This document shows positions 5,993 through 14,910 of a DNA stretch of 64,000 nucleotides, one piece after another. The stretch comes from Rhizobium sp. Q54 (GTDB lineage: Bacteria; Pseudomonadota; Alphaproteobacteria; SMXS01). The position numbers and the translations under genes were made by a program. Numbering within the stretch: position 1 is the first letter of the stretch; every line of letters starts with the position of its first letter. The DNA lies in the NCBI GenBank assembly GCA_945907245.1, contig CAMDTB010000006.1:1-64000 (forward strand). The letters run 5' to 3'. Below the pieces are notes generated by a model. The model was given only the letters and a program-made list of their open reading frames with translations. It was not told the DNA's origin and ran no database searches.

Positions 5993-6086
5993 GGCTGTCC
6001 CCGTTGTTTTGCCGCAGCCTAGCACGTTGCGCGGAAGCGGGCGCGGCGATAGAGTCGGAGCGATGAGGCACGCCCGTACACCCTTT

Positions 6087-6226
6087 ATTGTCATCCCCGC
6101 CTTGAGCGGGGACCCATCGCTGTGCAGAGACACCCCGAGTGGTGTATTGCAAAAGCCTTCCCGCATAACACGGACAGGACGGCTTCGACGTCGACATGGG
6201 TCCCCGCTCAAGGCGGGGATGACAAT
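6087..6226. repeat. 140-bp palindromic intergenic repeat with perfect 30-bp arms
   Basis: Left arm 6087-6116 and right arm 6197-6226 are perfect reverse complements over 30 nt. Each arm has its own inner inverted pair (CCCCGC...GCGGGG). The spacer is 80 nt. The outer ends are ATTGTCAT / ATGACAAT. No transposase is present, so this resembles a MITE-like or REP-like element. It lies at the 5' end of the M19 dipeptidase gene and supplies the last bases up to that gene's likely ATG. A related element lies at 56734-56870. Confidence 0.85.
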
Positions 6227-7433
6227 GGTGGGGGTGGTGCTGGCGTTGCTGGCCACTCCCGCGCTCGCCGACGAGGCCGCCGACATCCATGCCCGTGTGC
6301 TGACGCTGGACACCCACATCGACATCCCGGCCGACTACGCCACGCCAAAGCACGATCCCGGCGTTCGCGGCGACATGCAGGTCGATCTGCCGAAGCTGGC
6401 CGAGGGCAAGCTGGATGCCGGGTTCTTCATCGTCTATGTGGGCCAGGGGCCGGAGACGCCCGAGGGCTATGCGGACGCGTACAGGCAGGCGATCGGGAAG
6501 TTCGACGCCATCCACCGGCAGGCCGGGCAGTATCCCGGCAAGGTCGAGATGGCCTGGTCGCCCGCCGATGTCGAGCGCATCGTGGCCTCCGGCAAGATCG
6601 CGTCCTGCATCGGCGTCGAGAACCTGTATCCCGCCGGCCCGGACACCTCGAAGATCGAGGAGTTCTACCGGCGCGGCGCGCGCTACATGTCGCTGACCCA
6701 TTCGGGCGACAACCATCTGGCCGACAGCGCCAATCTGCTGGGCCAGCTTGACCAGCCGTCGCAGGAGACCCATCGCGGCCTGACGGAGATGGGCTTCGCC
6801 GCCATCGCCGAGATGAACCGGCTGGGCGTGATGATCGACGTCTCGCACAGCTCGGAAGCGACGACCTTGCAGGCGATCGAGGCATCGACGGCGCCGGTGA
6901 TCGCGTCCCATTCGGCGCTGCGCGGCGTCTACGACATCCCGCGCAACCTCAGCGACGAGGCGCTGAAGGCGCTGGCGGCCAGGGGCGGCGTGGTGCAGGT
7001 GGTGGCGTTCGACAGCTATCTGCGGCCGCCCGCGCCGGAAAAAGTCGCCGCCACGAAGGCGCTGCGCGAGGAACTGGGGCTGACCTCGGCCGCCGCCTGG
7101 AAGGCGATCACCGACGAACAGCGCAAGACCTACATGGCCCGGCTGAAGCAGCTGCACGCCCGATATGGCCGCGCCACCGTCAGCGACCTCGCCGACCACA
7201 TCGACCATGCGGTGACGCTGGTCGGGATCGACCATGTAGGCATCGCTTCGGACTTCGGCGGCGGCGGCGGCATCGGCGGCTGGGAGGACGCGTCCGAAAC
7301 CGGCAATGTCACCGCCGAGTTGGTCAGGCGCGGCTATGGGGAGGCGGATATCGCCAAGCTGTGGAGCGGCAACCTGCTGCGCGTGTGGCGGGCGGTGGAG
7401 TCGGCCGCGGGGCTGCAGGTGGCGGCCCCATAG
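6225..7433 (+). CDS. Secreted membrane dipeptidase (peptidase M19, renal dipeptidase family)
   Basis: A 402-residue metallopeptidase predicted to cleave dipeptides outside the cytoplasm. Zinc-site motifs are in order: HxD (DTHIDIPADY), bridging Glu (GVENLYPAG), LTHSGDNH, MIDVSHSS, ASHSALRGVYDIPRNLSD and a C-terminal SDFGGG. The N-terminus from the ATG at 6225 reads MVGVVLALLATPALA, a short signal peptide. The same frame stays open through the repeat to an ATG at 6063, so the gene may originally have begun there with a basic n-region. I chose 6225 because GGGGA within the repeat arm stands 5 nt before it. The start is the uncertain part; the family is not. Confidence 0.87.
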   Translation: MVGVVLALLATPALADEAADIHARVLTLDTHIDIPADYATPKHDPGVRGDMQVDLPKLAEGKLDAGFFIVYVGQGPETPEGYADAYRQAIGKFDAIHRQAGQYPGKVEMAWSPADVERIVASGKIASCIGVENLYPAGPDTSKIEEFYRRGARYMSLTHSGDNHLADSANLLGQLDQPSQETHRGLTEMGFAAIAEMNRLGVMIDVSHSSEATTLQAIEASTAPVIASHSALRGVYDIPRNLSDEALKALAARGGVVQVVAFDSYLRPPAPEKVAATKALREELGLTSAAAWKAITDEQRKTYMARLKQLHARYGRATVSDLADHIDHAVTLVGIDHVGIASDFGGGGGIGGWEDASETGNVTAELVRRGYGEADIAKLWSGNLLRVWRAVESAAGLQVAAP

Positions 7434-8678: not shown

Positions 8679-8708
8679 TGATCCGCCGGGCCGCCATGCA
8701 CGTATGAC
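8679..8708 (+). promoter_or_regulatory. RpoE (ECF11-type) promoter of the sigma/anti-sigma operon
   Basis: TGATCC at 8679-8684, an 18-nt spacer, then TATGAC at 8703-8708, located 21 nt before the sigma factor ATG. Rhodobacter sphaeroides RpoE recognises TGATCC-N18-TAAGA, so the -35 element is exact and the -10 nearly so. This implies that the operon activates its own transcription. The match is seen in the sequence; function is inferred. Confidence 0.75.
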
Positions 8709-8728: not shown

Positions 8729-9379
8729 ATGACACAGCACGCCGCGACCATTACCATCGACCCGGCGCCCGCACCCTGGCGGCGCACGGGAAGTAAAAGA
8801 CGCATGAAGCAACGGGCCGTCACGTCTCCGGAACAGGCCAGACGTCTCGAAGCACTGGTGGGCCTGATCGCGTGTCACCGCGACCGGAACGCCTTCATCG
8901 AGCTGTTCCAGCATTTCGCGCCGCGCCTGAAAGCCTTCATGATGCGCGGCGGCGCCGACCCCGAGACCGCCGAGGAAATCGCCCAGGAAGCCATGATTAC
9001 CGTCTGGAACAAGGCCGAGCAGTTCGATCCGTCGCGCGCGGCGCTGTCGACCTGGATATTCACCATCGCCCGCAACAAGCGCATCGACATGCTGCGCCGG
9101 CAGGTGCGGCCCGAGATCGACGCGCTCGACCTGCCCGGGGGCGACGACGTGCCGCCGCCGGACGCGCGACTGGAACTGACGCAGGCGTCGGCCGACCTGC
9201 GCGGTTCCATCGCCCTCCTGCCGCCCGAGCAACGCCAGGTCCTGCAGCTCGCATTCTTCGAGGACAAGTCCCACGGCGTCATCTCGGTGGAGTTGGGCCT
9301 GCCGCTGGGCACGGTCAAGTCCCGCATCCGGCTGGCGCTGGCCCGGCTGCGCGGCATGGTCGAGGGGCACCAGCCATGA
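8729..9379 (+). CDS. rpoE: ECF RNA polymerase sigma factor, RpoE/ECF11 type
   Basis: A 216-residue extracytoplasmic-function sigma factor. Region 2 (PETAEEIAQEAMITVWNKA, then STWIFTIARNKRIDMLRR) binds core polymerase and the -10 element. Region 4 (LPPEQRQVLQLAFFEDKSH through GTVKSRIRLALARLR) binds the -35 element. Assignment to the RpoE/ECF11 group rests on the adjacent chrR-type gene, the exact TGATCC promoter upstream and the photolyase/cfa target genes nearby. In Rhodobacter this sigma drives the response to singlet oxygen. An internal ATG (MKQRAV, 8804) is an alternative start, since the first 25 residues are not typical. The stop overlaps the next start as ATGA. Confidence 0.92.
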   Translation: MTQHAATITIDPAPAPWRRTGSKRRMKQRAVTSPEQARRLEALVGLIACHRDRNAFIELFQHFAPRLKAFMMRGGADPETAEEIAQEAMITVWNKAEQFDPSRAALSTWIFTIARNKRIDMLRRQVRPEIDALDLPGGDDVPPPDARLELTQASADLRGSIALLPPEQRQVLQLAFFEDKSHGVISVELGLPLGTVKSRIRLALARLRGMVEGHQP

Positions 9380-10023
9380 CCGCCGACCTGGACCTTCTGT
9401 TGCTGGACTATGCGAGCGGCGCGCTGCAGGAAGGCCCCGCGCTGGCCGTCGCCACCAAGCTGGCCCTGGACCCGGCCGCCCGCGCCGACATGCGGCTGCT
9501 GGAGGCGACCGGCGGCGCCCTTTTCGACGGCGTCGAGCCGGAGGCGGTATCGGAAAGCCTGCTTGACGCGACGCTCGATCGGCTTGACGGGGAATCGACG
9601 AGATTCGCGCTGGCGTTGCCGCCCGACGACGAAGCCCGCCGTTTGCTGCCCGCGCCGCTTTGGCGATATGCGCCGCGAGGCCTGGACGGATTGCAGTGGA
9701 AGCAGTGGGGCAAGCATGTCCGCGAGGCCACGCTGCCGCTCGCCGACCGTCGTTACCGGGCGACGTTGCTGCACATCAAGGGTGGCCACGGGGTGATGCG
9801 CCACACCCATCGCGGCACCGAATACACCGTCGTGCTCGCCGGTTCGTTCCATGACGAGGATGGGCGTTACGGCACCGGCGCGATGCAGATCTGCGACGGC
9901 ACGATCCGGCACCGGCCCATCGCCGACGAGGGTCAGGATTGCCTTTGCCTGGGCGTGCTGGACGCGCCGATGCACTTCACCGGTCTGCTGGGCCGGTTCA
10001 TCAACCCCAAGGTCCGGTTCTAG
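9376..10023 (+). CDS. chrR: ChrR-family anti-sigma factor with cupin-like domain, N-terminal zinc ligands lost
   Basis: A 215-residue cytoplasmic anti-sigma factor predicted to hold RpoE inactive until singlet oxygen or a similar signal appears. The C-terminal cupin-like domain keeps the metal set H143-x-H145-x3-E149 and H179, plus the CxC pair C189/C191 (DCLCL). In the N-terminal sigma-binding domain the zinc ligands of Rhodobacter ChrR (H6, H31, C35, C38) are absent: the ATHLSLCDEC segment reads ATKLALDPAA here. Family and pairing with the sigma factor are firm; the consequence of the missing zinc site is unknown. It converges on cfa with a 5-nt gap. Confidence 0.92.
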   Translation: MTADLDLLLLDYASGALQEGPALAVATKLALDPAARADMRLLEATGGALFDGVEPEAVSESLLDATLDRLDGESTRFALALPPDDEARRLLPAPLWRYAPRGLDGLQWKQWGKHVREATLPLADRRYRATLLHIKGGHGVMRHTHRGTEYTVVLAGSFHDEDGRYGTGAMQICDGTIRHRPIADEGQDCLCLGVLDAPMHFTGLLGRFINPKVRF

Positions 10024-10028
10024 GAAAT

Positions 10029-11312
10029 CTACTCCCGCGTCAGCGCGACCTGCATGACGTCGATGGTCTTGGCGCGGAAGCCGCCCTCGCAATAGGCCAG
10101 GTAGTAGCGCCACAGGCGGCGGAAACGGTCGTCCAGGCCGTCGAAGCGGAGCCCCTCGGCGGCGGTTTCGAACCGTTCGCGCCACAGCCGAAGCGTGCGG
10201 GCGTAGTGATCGGCGTAGAACGCCTCGTTCAGCACCTTCAGTCCGGCGCGTCCCACCTCCTCGCGGAACACCTTGAGCGACGGCAGCATGCCGCCGGGGA
10301 AGATGTGGGTCTGGATGAAGTCGGGCCGGCGCCGGTAGGATTCGTAAGCGTCGTCGCGGATGGTGATCACCTGCAGCGCGGCCCGTCCGCCCGGGCGTAC
10401 GGTCTGCGCCACCTTGTCGAAGAATGCCGGCCAGTATTTCTCGCCCACGGCCTCGAACATCTCGATCGACGCCAGATGGTCGAACTTGCCCTGCACATCG
10501 CGGTAGTCGATGAGCTGGACCGACACCTGATTGCCGAGGCCGGCGCGCTGGATGCGCTCGCTGGCATAGCGGTGCTGTTCCTGCGAGATGGTGATCGAGG
10601 TCACATCAACGCCGCGCTCGCGCGCCGCGAACTCGGCGAAGCCGCCCCAGCCGCAGCCGATCTCCAGCACCCGCTCGCCCGGCTTGGGGTCGATCATGTC
10701 GAGCAGCCGCCGATACTTGTGGCGCTGCGCTTCCTCGAGCGTCGTGTCCTCGGTCGGGAACACGCCCGAGGAATAGGTGACGGTGTCGTCGAGCCAGGAG
10801 GTGTAGAACTCGTTGCCCAGATCGTAATGGGCGGCGATGTTGCGCCGGCTGCCCTTGCGCGAGTTGGACCGCACCGAATGGGCCAGCCTCTGCAGCGCCT
10901 GGGACAGCTTGTGCCCCTGGATCTCGCGGCGGGCGCCCAGCCGGTTGCGCGCCGCCAGCTCGATCAGCGCCGCCAGGTCCGTGGTCTCCCAGTGGCCGGC
11001 GATGTAGGAGTCGGCGAAACCCACGCTGCCGGCGCCGAACAGCCGCTTCAGCGCGTCCCAGTCGCGGAAATGCAGGTCCGCCTCCGGGCCCGGCTCGGCG
11101 CCCCGGAAGGTGCGGCGCTCGCCGGAGGGTACCTCGACGGTGAGGATGCCGGCGTCCAGATTGCGGTCGATGAAGCCGAAGAGTTGTGCCTCTCCGGCGC
11201 GGCTGAGCAGGCGCCCGATCCCGCCCAGGGCCATACGCGGCAACCCCAGCCCCTGGGCGGCGATGCGCCCGGCCGGGCTATCTTCCGGCAGCATAAAGTG
11301 GTTCATGGACAT
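10029..11312 (-). CDS. cfa: Cyclopropane-fatty-acyl-phospholipid synthase
   Basis: A 427-residue SAM-dependent enzyme that adds a methylene bridge to unsaturated acyl chains of membrane phospholipids. The N-terminal lipid-binding part is followed by AAHYDLGNEFYTSWLD near 165, the SAM motif VLEIGCGWGGFAEFA near 210, and the conserved SIEMFEAVGEKYW and GGRAALQVITI segments. It is the last gene of a four-gene operon and overlaps the preceding DUF1365 gene by 35 nt. In Rhodobacter, cfa-type genes belong to the RpoE singlet-oxygen regulon and modify membranes under photooxidative stress; the same role is inferred here. ATG at 11294 is an alternative start. Confidence 0.94.
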   Translation of the reverse strand: MSMNHFMLPEDSPAGRIAAQGLGLPRMALGGIGRLLSRAGEAQLFGFIDRNLDAGILTVEVPSGERRTFRGAEPGPEADLHFRDWDALKRLFGAGSVGFADSYIAGHWETTDLAALIELAARNRLGARREIQGHKLSQALQRLAHSVRSNSRKGSRRNIAAHYDLGNEFYTSWLDDTVTYSSGVFPTEDTTLEEAQRHKYRRLLDMIDPKPGERVLEIGCGWGGFAEFAARERGVDVTSITISQEQHRYASERIQRAGLGNQVSVQLIDYRDVQGKFDHLASIEMFEAVGEKYWPAFFDKVAQTVRPGGRAALQVITIRDDAYESYRRRPDFIQTHIFPGGMLPSLKVFREEVGRAGLKVLNEAFYADHYARTLRLWRERFETAAEGLRFDGLDDRFRRLWRYYLAYCEGGFRAKTIDVMQVALTRE

Positions 11313-12082: not shown

Positions 12083-13432
12083 TCAGGCCACCGCCGCGAC
12101 GGCGGGCCGGTCTGCGAGCCAGGGGAGCTCGGCGCCGAGCGCCAGCGCGACGTTGAGACCGGAGGTGAAGGCGTCCTCGTGGAAGCCGTAGCCGAAATAG
12201 CTGCCGCAGTACCAGATCCGGTCGGCGCCCTGAATCTCCGGCAGCCGCTTCTGGGCGGCGAGCGCCTTGCCGTCGAACGACGGATGATCGTAGGTGAGGC
12301 GGGCGATGACCGCCTCGTCCTTCGGCTCGTGCAGCGGGTTGAGGGTGACGAACAGCGGCACGCGCGGGTCGATGCCCTGCAGCCGGTTCATCCAGTAGGT
12401 GACAGACAGCCGGCCTTCCACGTCCTCGGCTCCGCTCGACAGATAGTTCCAGCTCGACCAGACGTTGCGCCGCCTGGGCATGAGCCTGCTGTCCCGGTGC
12501 AGGATGACGCCGTTCTTCTCGTAGTCGAACACGCCGAGCACCGCACTCTCGGCCGGCGTCGGCTCGGACAGCATGGCATAGGCCTGGTCGGCATGGGCGG
12601 CGATCACCACTTGGTCATAGATCACGCCCTCGTCGGCGTCGGTCTTGACCCGTACGCCCGCTGGCTCGCGCGTCACCTCGCGGACCGCATGGCCGGAGCG
12701 GATGTCGCCCGCGAAGTCATTGAGGATGGCGCGCACATAGGCCTGGCTGCCGCCGGTGACCGTACGCCAGCGCGGCCGGCCGTTCACGGTCAGCAAACCA
12801 TGCTGCTGGTAGAACCGGATGAAGGTGGCCGCCGGGAAATCCTCGATCTTGTGGACCGGCATGGACCAGATCGCCGCCGCCATCGGATACAGGTGGTTGA
12901 AGCGGAAATATTTCGAGTAGCCCTGCCGGTCGAGCAGCTTGCCGAGGGTGATGCTCTCCAGGTCCTCGCGCTCCAGCAGCAGCGGCATCTCCCGGTAGAA
13001 GCGCAGCACGTCCCAGACCATGCGCCAGTACAATGGCCGCGCGACGTTGCGGCGCTGGGCGAACAGGCCGGACATTCCGGTGCCGGAATATTCCAGCTGG
13101 CCGTCGCGGATCGACACGGCGAAGGACATGTCGCTGCCCGACGTGGCGACGCCCAGATGGGCGAACATGGTCACGAGGTTCGGGTAGTTCACCTCGTTGT
13201 AGACGATGAATCCGGTATCCACGGGTACATCGCCCATCGCGGTGGGCGCGGTCATGGTGTGGCTGTGGCCGCCCAGGCGCCGGTCCGCCTCGTAGAGCGT
13301 AACCCGGTGGTGCTTTGACAGCACCCAAGCTGCGCCGAGACCCGCCGCGCCCGACCCGATCACGGCGATGTGCTGCGGTGCCGAGGGCTGCCGGATAGGA
13401 ACGATATTGAGTAGTTGGCCCGTGCTTGTCAT
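12083..13432 (-). CDS. FAD-dependent oxidoreductase, amine-oxidase-like, of the cfa operon
   Basis: A 449-residue flavoprotein with the dinucleotide-binding motif VIGSGAAGLGAAWVLSKHH near residue 25, followed by LYEADRRLGGHSHT, the usual N-terminal signature of the NAD(P)-binding/amine-oxidase-like family. A C-terminal FAD contact (IWYCGSYFGYGFHEDAFTSG) is present. No membrane segment is seen. The gene lies between photolyase and DUF1365 genes. The trio FAD enzyme, DUF1365 and cfa is conserved in bacteria and is RpoE-controlled in Rhodobacter. A role in fatty-acid modification or oxidant defence is inferred from context; the substrate is not known. Confidence 0.9.
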   Translation of the reverse strand: MTSTGQLLNIVPIRQPSAPQHIAVIGSGAAGLGAAWVLSKHHRVTLYEADRRLGGHSHTMTAPTAMGDVPVDTGFIVYNEVNYPNLVTMFAHLGVATSGSDMSFAVSIRDGQLEYSGTGMSGLFAQRRNVARPLYWRMVWDVLRFYREMPLLLEREDLESITLGKLLDRQGYSKYFRFNHLYPMAAAIWSMPVHKIEDFPAATFIRFYQQHGLLTVNGRPRWRTVTGGSQAYVRAILNDFAGDIRSGHAVREVTREPAGVRVKTDADEGVIYDQVVIAAHADQAYAMLSEPTPAESAVLGVFDYEKNGVILHRDSRLMPRRRNVWSSWNYLSSGAEDVEGRLSVTYWMNRLQGIDPRVPLFVTLNPLHEPKDEAVIARLTYDHPSFDGKALAAQKRLPEIQGADRIWYCGSYFGYGFHEDAFTSGLNVALALGAELPWLADRPAVAAVA

Positions 13433-13442
13433 ATGTCTCTAT

Positions 13443-14876
13443 TCATGGAGTAATGTCGTCGTTCATCCGGCCAAACGCGGCCAGGGCCCGCTTGCGCGCC
13501 TCGACGTGGTCAACGATACGATCCGGATAAGACTGCCCAAGCCTCAAACCCATCGTTTCCCGGCGAGCGGGCGTCATTGTCCAAGGCTCCGCCACGTACG
13601 GATCCGGAACGTTGCCCAGCTCCGGTATCCAGCGACGCACGTAACGCCCTTCAGGATCGAACTTTCGCGCCTGCAGCGCCGGGTTGAAAACCCGAAAATA
13701 TGGTGCCGCATCAGTACCACAGCCGGCTACCCATTGCCAGCCGGACGAATTATTGGCGGCGTCGGCATCGACCAGCGTGTCGAGAAACCAGGCGGCGCCG
13801 AGCCGCCAGTCGAGGCGCAGATCCTTGACCAGGAACGAGGCGGCGATCATGCGCACCCGGTTGTGCATCCAGCCGGTGCGCCACAATTGCCGCATGCCCG
13901 CATCGACGATGGGATATCCGGTCTCGCCACGCTGCCAGGCACGCAGGGATTCGTCGTCATGCTCCCACGGGAATGACTCAAACTCGCGCCGGAGCGGCCG
14001 GTGGGTCATTTCCGGAAAATGGTGCAGGAGATGGCACGAGAATTCGCGCCACATCACCTCGCGCAGGAACGCCGCGATGCCGGCGCCGCCCGCGTCGGGA
14101 TGGTGGATGGCCGCGTGCCAGACCTGACGGGCGCTGACCTCGCCGAAATGCAGGTGGGGCGACAGGCGCGAGGTGCCGTCGCCGGCGGGGATGTCGCGGG
14201 CATCGGCATAGCCGGCGGCAGTCCGGTCCAGGAATGCCTCCAGGCGGTGCGCCGCGCCGGCCTCGCCCGGAGTCCAGCTTTCGCGCAGGCCGCCCGCCCA
14301 ATCGGGCGCGGCCGGCAACAGCCCCCAGTCCGCAAGCGTGTCGCTGGCCGGCCAATGGCCGGGGGCGGCAAGCGCGGCAGGAGCGGCGACCGGTGCGTCG
14401 GGCGCGGGCGCGTCCAGACAGGCCCTGTGGAAGGGCGTGAACACGCGGTACGGAGCGCCGGTCTGGGTCAGCACCGTCCCCGGTTCGAACAGATGGTTGC
14501 CCGGAAACAGCTTCAGCCCGACGCCGGACTCGGCGACCAGGCGTTCGACCGCCCGCTGCCTCGGCTCGTGAGAGCGGCTGGCCATGATCCCGCCGGCGCC
14601 GGTCTCGCGGACCAGATCGGGCAGGACACGGGCCGCGTTGCCGCGCCGCAGGATCAGCCGCGATCCCACAGTGGCCAGCGCCGCAGCAAGCCGCTCAAGG
14701 CTATGGTGCAGCCACCAGCAGCTGGCGGCGCCGGGCATGGCGTGGCGGTTGCCCTCGTCGAGCACGAAGACCGGGATGACCGGCCGGCCGCTGCGCGCGG
14801 CCATGGCAAGCGCGGGATGATCCGCGAGACGCAGGTCCGACCGGAACAGGACGATGAGAGGCGAAGACGCGGACAT
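13443..14876 (-). CDS. phrB: Deoxyribodipyrimidine photolyase
   Basis: A 477-residue cryptochrome/photolyase family enzyme that uses blue light and reduced FAD to split cyclobutane pyrimidine dimers. The N-terminal antenna domain begins IVLFRSDLRLADHPAL. The FAD-binding helical domain carries TSRLSPHLHFGEVSARQVW, GYPIVDAGMRQLWRTGWMHN and the signature NSSGWQWVAGCGTDAAPYFR near 385. It is the first gene of the operon that continues with the FAD enzyme, DUF1365 and cfa. Its ATG falls about where transcription from the RpoE-like promoter at 14881-14910 would begin, so the message may be nearly leaderless. Confidence 0.94.
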   Translation of the reverse strand: MSASSPLIVLFRSDLRLADHPALAMAARSGRPVIPVFVLDEGNRHAMPGAASCWWLHHSLERLAAALATVGSRLILRRGNAARVLPDLVRETGAGGIMASRSHEPRQRAVERLVAESGVGLKLFPGNHLFEPGTVLTQTGAPYRVFTPFHRACLDAPAPDAPVAAPAALAAPGHWPASDTLADWGLLPAAPDWAGGLRESWTPGEAGAAHRLEAFLDRTAAGYADARDIPAGDGTSRLSPHLHFGEVSARQVWHAAIHHPDAGGAGIAAFLREVMWREFSCHLLHHFPEMTHRPLRREFESFPWEHDDESLRAWQRGETGYPIVDAGMRQLWRTGWMHNRVRMIAASFLVKDLRLDWRLGAAWFLDTLVDADAANNSSGWQWVAGCGTDAAPYFRVFNPALQARKFDPEGRYVRRWIPELGNVPDPYVAEPWTMTPARRETMGLRLGQSYPDRIVDHVEARKRALAAFGRMNDDITP

Positions 14877-14880
14877 GAAC

Positions 14881-14910
14881 CCTGTACGCCCGCCATGCGG
14901 GCGCGGATCA
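14881..14910 (-). promoter_or_regulatory. RpoE-type promoter upstream of the photolyase operon
   Basis: On the minus strand TGATCC (14910-14905), an 18-nt spacer and TACAGG (14886-14881) stand just before the photolyase ATG. The -35 hexamer and spacing equal those of the sigma operon promoter at 8679-8708; the -10 keeps the initial TA. The expected transcription start is within a few bases of the ATG. Function is inferred from the match and the target gene. Confidence 0.6.

What the first reader, a model, noticed from the sequence alone, without database searches (positions are those of the whole stretch)
9376..10023. ChrR-type anti-sigma factor without its N-terminal zinc site
In Rhodobacter sphaeroides ChrR, zinc held by H6, H31, C35 and C38 is needed for the sigma-binding domain. 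Here the aligned segment has Lys28, Asp32 and Ala35, and no His near the start. The cupin-like domain keeps H143/H145/E149/H179 and the CxC pair C189/C191. The protein would therefore have to bind RpoE without structural zinc while still sensing through the cupin metal. The alignment is from memory of the ChrR sequence; the missing residues are seen directly.
Basis: partly seen in the sequence, partly recalled or inferred. Interest (0 to 1): 0.62.

Follow-up and report, generated by a model that had tools for sequence, protein, structure and literature searches.

The report
Singlet-oxygen anti-sigma factor without structural zinc
This bacterial brake protein (ChrR), which normally needs a zinc ion to hold down the master switch of the light-damage response, has lost that zinc site but kept everything else, and the same loss has happened many times in related bacteria, which makes it a natural test of which half of ChrR senses the damage.

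Summary
Window 9376-10023 (+) encodes a 215-aa ChrR-family anti-sigma factor. Its sigma-binding domain (ASD) lacks all four R. sphaeroides zinc ligands (H6, H31, C35, C38 read A3, K28, D32, A35), and residues 1-89 contain no Cys or His. The cupin metal site is intact.

It is not a private oddity. All seven genus members and a second genus of the family share it. In an even class survey, 33 of 141 alphaproteobacterial ChrRs (18 of 64 families) lack HxxxCxxC, while the cupin HHEHC set is kept in 145 of 145. A tree needs 16 changes of state, at least 9 on well-supported branches. The ASD is under purifying selection and is predicted to fold as in 2Q1Z/2Z2S.

The window clade still carries the canonical singlet-oxygen module: overlapping sigma gene, R. 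sphaeroides-type RpoE promoters upstream of sigma and photolyase, and the FAD-oxidoreductase/DUF1365/CFA operon.

Most likely it is a working ChrR whose ASD is held together by packing and helix capping (D32 at the N-cap of helix 3) instead of zinc, with sensing left to the cupin domain. Zinc-free ASDs are already known (RseA, RskA). What is new is a recurrent, testable zinc-free variant of ChrR itself.

The parts
9376..10023 (+). chrR homologue, 215 aa: ChrR-family anti-sigma factor without ASD zinc ligands
   Evidence: TIGR02451 183 bits vs cut-off 124.5; PDB 2Z2S/2Q1Z; AF2 model pLDDT 89.5, Z 21.6 to 2Q1Z
9376..9588 (+). anti-sigma domain (residues 1-71): helices 5-13, 19-31, 33-51, 60-71; no His/Cys; A3/K28/D32/A35 at ligand positions; D32 at the N-cap of helix 3
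   Evidence: alignment and residue counts, AF2 secondary structure, dN/dS 0.13-0.55
9652..10020 (+). cupin-like domain with intact metal set H143/H145/E149/H179 and C189/C191
   Evidence: Pfam Cupin_7; HHEHC invariant in 145/145 homologues
8729..9379 (+). cognate ECF sigma factor gene (ECF11/RpoE-like); stop overlaps the chrR start (ATGA)
   Evidence: Pfam Sigma70_r2 and r4; overlap -4 in most clade members
8679..8704 (+). RpoE-type promoter TGATCC-N15-ACGTA upstream of sigma-chrR (autoregulation)
   Evidence: R. sphaeroides RpoE promoter TGATCC(N15)GCGTA (PMC5036791); motif of this type upstream of sigma in all eight family genomes examined (one has TGATCT)
14885..14910 (-). RpoE-type promoter TGATCC-N15-GCGTA (exact match to the R. 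sphaeroides motif) in front of the photolyase operon
   Evidence: site of this type before photolyase in seven further family genomes
13443..14876 (-). DNA photolyase, first gene of the facing operon
   Evidence: Pfam FAD_binding_7 and DNA_photolyase
12083..13432 (-). FAD-dependent oxidoreductase; candidate RSP_1091-type gene
   Evidence: Pfam Amino_oxidase/NAD_binding_8; RSP_1091 described as FAD/NAD-binding, next to rpoE-chrR (PMC3818230)
11278..12075 (-). DUF1365 protein; candidate RSP_1090-type gene
   Evidence: Pfam DUF1365; match to RSP_1090 by operon order and recall, not by direct sequence comparison
10029..11312 (-). cyclopropane-fatty-acid-synthase-like methyltransferase, last gene of the operon
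   Evidence: Pfam CMAS

Best explanation
This is a functional ChrR anti-sigma factor of the ECF11 / singlet-oxygen type whose sigma-binding domain folds and holds its sigma factor without structural zinc. Shown here: all ASD ligands lost as a set, cupin metal site kept, ASD conserved, predicted to fold as in the solved complex, and the sigma gene, RpoE promoters and regulon genes in place. Inferred: the helical bundle is stabilised by hydrophobic packing and by an N-capping residue (D32, in place of Cys35, at the start of helix 3) that replaces the zinc knuckle; the ASD sequesters sigma; and stress is sensed through the cupin metal site (H143/H145/E149/H179), probably with help from the neighbouring FAD-oxidoreductase/DUF1365 pair, which frees sigma to transcribe its own operon and the photolyase operon.
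For: ChrR family membership and fold: (Z 21.6 to 2Q1Z over 178 residues, ASD included). ASD model confidence is close to that of a zinc-type orthologue modelled as a control (ten-residue blocks 95/98/96/92 against 98/98/98/97). No His/Cys in residues 1-89. Purifying selection on the ASD within the genus: dN/dS 0.13-0.55, similar to the cupin domain at 0.03-0.51. The cupin set HHEHC is kept in 145/145 while the ASD motif is missing in 33/141. 16 changes of zinc state by parsimony, at least 9 forced by starred branches; H6 goes together with the Cys pair in every informative independent pair (7 of 7, p 0.016), as expected for loss of one metal site. Position 35 becomes S/T/D/N in 17 of 25 lineages (p 1e-6 at 22% background, 5e-5 at the 2/7 expected from one-base changes of Cys), and in both models it is the single non-helical residue before helix 3. 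Promoters and operon conserved in the family. RsiW binds SigW without zinc (PMC5358783); RseA reaches the same ASD fold by protein contacts alone (PMC6852236).
Against: No experiment here shows sigma binding. In R. [quoted passage not shown] The 25 lineages were grouped partly by hand from the tree and include rows that could not be placed on it, so they are not all proven independent. Eight lineages (R, K or L at position 35) do not fit capping. No compensating change elsewhere in ASD or sigma was detectable (656 tests, nothing beyond H5/H6; low power). The complex with sigma was not modelled.
Confidence: 0.72

Rival explanations
1. The ASD still binds a metal, using Asp/Glu or backbone ligands or a site shared with the sigma factor.
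For: D32 keeps an oxygen ligand at the Cys35 position, and 37 of 89 zinc-less homologues have Asp there; many other lineages also keep H31.
Against: In the window clade H31 is K, Q or M, H6 is gone and C38 is Ala, leaving one candidate oxygen ligand. Loss of H6 together with the Cys pair points to abandonment of the site, not ligand swapping.
Confidence: 0.06
2. The ASD is degenerate: this ChrR no longer inhibits sigma, which is constitutive or controlled otherwise, and the cupin domain has another job.
For: All four ligands essential in R. sphaeroides are gone, and 24 of 45 zinc-less rows in the tree set lack the upstream RpoE promoter, so some zinc-less lineages may be rewired.
Against: Purifying selection on the ASD, ASD residues such as L10, Y12, A13 and G15-L17 invariant in a 54-sequence alignment, the predicted fold, and the overlapping sigma gene with conserved autoregulatory promoter in the whole family.
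Confidence: 0.12
3. Sensing differs from R. sphaeroides: without the reactive Zn-thiolate ASD the protein responds to another signal (for example organic hydroperoxide, or only to proteolysis triggered by the FAD/DUF1365 pair) and not to singlet oxygen directly. This can be true together with a working zinc-free ASD.
For: Chabert et al. 2019 (PMC6432622) propose the ASD zinc-thiolate as the singlet-oxygen target, and singlet oxygen and peroxide use separable routes in R. sphaeroides (PMC3818230).
Against: The cupin residues needed for the response (E147 and H177 in R. sphaeroides; PMC6852236) are kept, as are neighbouring genes of the kind needed for singlet-oxygen-triggered ChrR turnover and the photolyase.
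Confidence: 0.25

Closest known systems
Rhodobacter sphaeroides ChrR with SigE/RpoE (ECF11; PDB 2Q1Z, 2Z2S)
   Same: Same two-domain protein (about 40% identity over the aligned part), same cupin metal residues, sigma gene directly upstream, same promoter motif, FAD-oxidoreductase and CFA-type genes nearby.
   Different: No ASD zinc ligands (H6/H31/C35/C38 are A/K/D/A).
RseA (E. coli) and RskA (M. tuberculosis) zinc-free class I anti-sigma domains
   Same: Helical anti-sigma domain that works without zinc.
   Different: Not ChrR-type: RseA is membrane-bound and released by proteolysis; no cupin sensor; very distant in sequence.
RsiW (B. subtilis)
   Same: Sigma binding does not depend on zinc.
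   Different: Keeps a zinc motif that can be emptied; membrane-bound.
Mixed zinc / non-zinc class I ASD groups (AS27, AS19-1; AS33-1/33-2) in the 2020 coevolution survey (PMC7406223)
   Same: Same phenomenon: zinc motif present or absent within one group.
   Different: The passages retrieved do not discuss a mixed zinc state for AS11 (ChrR) or the retention of the cupin site.

Membership tests
ChrR family (TIGR02451) | Whole-protein profile match over the curated cut-off | tested here: met
   183.2 bits vs 124.5
ChrR family (TIGR02451) | ASD plus cupin-like domain fold as in 2Q1Z/2Z2S | tested here: met
   AF2 model, Z 21.6 / 20.8, 178-179 residues aligned across both domains
ChrR family (TIGR02451) | Cupin metal ligands His-x-His, Glu, His | tested here: met
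   H143/H145/E149/H179
ChrR family (TIGR02451) | Encoded directly downstream of an ECF sigma gene with RpoE-type promoter | tested here: met
   ATGA overlap, TGATCC-N15-ACGTA at 8679
ChrR family (TIGR02451) | Inhibits its sigma factor | not testable with these tools
   needs biochemistry or a reporter strain
ZAS (zinc-binding anti-sigma) subfamily | H/C-X(23-26)-H-X3-C-X2-C zinc motif in the ASD | tested here: not met
   A3, K28, D32, A35; no His or Cys in residues 1-89
ECF11 sigma / singlet-oxygen regulon | Promoter TGATCC(N15)GCGTA upstream of sigma and regulon genes | tested here: met
   8679-8704 (ACGTA variant) and 14885-14910 (exact); conserved in family
ECF11 sigma / singlet-oxygen regulon | RSP_1091/RSP_1090-type genes nearby | tested here: inconclusive
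   FAD-oxidoreductase and DUF1365 genes found; identity with RSP_1091/1090 rests on recall and operon order, no direct sequence comparison
ECF11 sigma / singlet-oxygen regulon | Induction by singlet oxygen | not testable with these tools
   needs an experiment

The most novel reading that the evidence does not exclude
In ChrR the ASD zinc is a dispensable structural strut, repeatedly replaced in evolution by helix capping and packing, and singlet-oxygen sensing resides entirely in the cupin domain; the window's family, with a zinc-free ASD inside an otherwise canonical regulon, is the natural proof.
Probability: 0.45. Interest if true: 0.65.

Novelty: new variant of a known kind. Interest (0 to 1): 0.48.

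Why it matters
Whether the ASD zinc site or the cupin domain of ChrR detects singlet oxygen is openly debated (PMC6432622, PMC6852236). A zinc-free ChrR with an intact cupin site, canonical promoters and photolyase operon separates the two by nature: if it still responds to singlet oxygen, the Zn-thiolate cannot be the obligatory sensor. The contrast across the class (cupin site 145/145 kept, ASD zinc motif missing in 33/141) already leans that way.

Tried and rejected
Missed start codon carrying the N-terminal His: rejected, no in-frame start within 120 nt upstream, and H31/C35/C38 are missing anyway. Alternative His/Cys ligands: none in residues 1-89. Second, zinc-bearing ChrR in the genome: none found; no zf-HC2 (PF13490) match in the genome either. 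Compensating changes in ASD or sigma: 656 column/class tests on independent pairs gave only H6 and H5. Zinc loss linked to loss of the RpoE promoter: raw counts suggested it (promoter in 91/128 zinc-type against 24/85 zinc-less) but independent pairs give no support (median p 1), so dropped. First alignment was too divergent for a collection scan; a narrower one worked, but its 80 loci are biased towards window-like sequences, so the frequency estimate uses only the class survey. One pattern search with the wrong spacer found nothing and was redone. The organism could not be named: nearest named loci are metagenome-assembled genomes with conflicting labels.

Full report
What is there. The ORF at 9376-10023 (+) encodes 215 residues and belongs to the ChrR family by curated profile (TIGR02451, 183 bits, cut-off 124.5) and by sequence match to the solved ChrR structures 2Z2S and 2Q1Z. 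In the alignment the R. sphaeroides zinc ligands H6, H31, C35 and C38 fall on A3, K28, D32 and A35, while the cupin ligands H141, H143, E147, H177 and the pair C187/C189 fall on H143, H145, E149, H179 and C189/C191. The reference sequence used for numbering equals the PDB chain from residue 9 on. Residues 1-89 contain no His or Cys at all.

Not an error and not alone. The genome holds one ChrR. All seven genomes of the genus, and a genome of a second genus in the same family, show the same state at 53-94% identity; the third genus of the family is represented by a ChrR cut off at a contig start and by one genome without a match. An evenly drawn class survey of 385 genomes gave 141 ChrR proteins over the cut-off that I could read; 33 lack HxxxCxxC, in 18 of 64 families, while the first five cupin positions (H, H, E, H, C) are kept in 145 of 145. 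On a tree built from the cupin domain and the sigma factor only, so without the trait's own columns, zinc state changes at least 16 times by parsimony, at least 9 of them forced by well-supported branches; the window clade of seven rows is fully supported and wholly zinc-less. Zinc-type rows have H6 in 127 of 127 readable cases, zinc-less rows in 6 of 84; in independent pairs H6 and the Cys pair always go together (7 of 7 informative, p 0.016). This is the signature of giving up one metal site as a unit. The tree cannot by itself tell loss from gain, although the wide spread of the motif in ZAS proteins makes loss the natural reading.

Is it functional. dN/dS in the ASD among genus members is 0.13-0.55, comparable to the cupin domain (0.03-0.51), while the linker ranges from 0.28 to 1.92. 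AlphaFold2 with 54 related sequences gives mean pLDDT 89.5 and confident ASD helices 5-13, 19-31, 33-51 and 60-71. The model aligns to 2Q1Z across both domains (Z 21.6, 2.6 A, 178 residues). A zinc-type orthologue modelled with the same sequences has the same helices. In both models the residue equivalent to Cys35 is the single break between helices 2 and 3. In zinc-less homologues that residue is Asp, Asn or Ser in 67 of 89 sequences, and in 17 of 25 lineages it is a helix N-cap former (p 1e-6 against a 22% background, 5e-5 against the 2/7 expected from one-base changes of a Cys codon). I infer that capping of helix 3, with hydrophobic packing, takes over from the zinc knuckle. The 25 lineages were grouped partly by hand, so the p-values are indicative.

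The pathway around it. The sigma gene overlaps chrR by ATGA. Upstream of it lies TGATCC-N15-ACGTA (8679-8704), and in front of the photolyase operon lies TGATCC-N15-GCGTA (14885-14910, minus strand), an exact match to the published R. sphaeroides RpoE promoter TGATCC(N15)GCGTA (PMC5036791). A site of this type precedes sigma in all eight family genomes examined and photolyase in seven besides the window. The operon encodes photolyase, an FAD-dependent oxidoreductase, a DUF1365 protein and a CFA-type methyltransferase. In R. sphaeroides RSP_1091 (FAD/NAD-binding) and RSP_1090 are needed for singlet-oxygen-triggered ChrR turnover (PMC3818230); the window's FAD and DUF1365 genes are the likely counterparts, though I did not compare sequences directly. 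Many other zinc-less lineages, such as Reyranella, lack both the promoter motif and these neighbours near chrR, though independent pairs show no link between zinc state and promoter; the window family keeps all of them, which makes it the cleaner case.

What was known. Zinc-free anti-sigma domains of this fold exist (RseA, RskA), RsiW binds without zinc, and zinc and non-zinc ASDs are mixed across the anti-sigma tree (PMC7406223, PMC5358783, PMC6852236). ChrR itself is described as zinc-dependent, with zinc binding required for inhibition (PMC6852236), and its ASD zinc site has been proposed as the singlet-oxygen target (PMC6432622). I found no description of zinc-less ChrR in the held library, which lacks most subscription papers.

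Verdict. A real, conserved, recurrent zinc-free variant of ChrR; a member of the ChrR family but not of the ZAS subfamily. The mechanism (capping, cupin-only sensing) is inferred and directly testable.

Noticed in passing
window 6078-6235: A 40-nt inverted repeat (90% complementary, 78 nt between arms; TTGTCATCCCCGCCTTGAGCGGGGACCCAT) lies between two genes and is translated into spurious ORF extensions on both strands; looks like a palindromic intergenic repeat element.
   Followed up: partly
L039, L061, L083 and relatives: Many zinc-less ChrRs of Reyranella and SAR116-like genomes also replace the second cupin Cys (C189 in R. sphaeroides) by Ala or Val and lack the RpoE promoter motif and the FAD/DUF1365/CFA neighbours; they may be rewired ChrR systems.
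   Followed up: partly
L019, L189, L206 (family f19); L208, L209, L227: Zinc-less ChrR homologues for which no similar sigma gene was found next to them in the fetched 1.5 kb.
   Followed up: no
L215, L225: ChrR homologues with Cys at the H31 position and Lys/Val at the two Cys positions, a state that is neither zinc-type nor the common zinc-less type.
   Followed up: no
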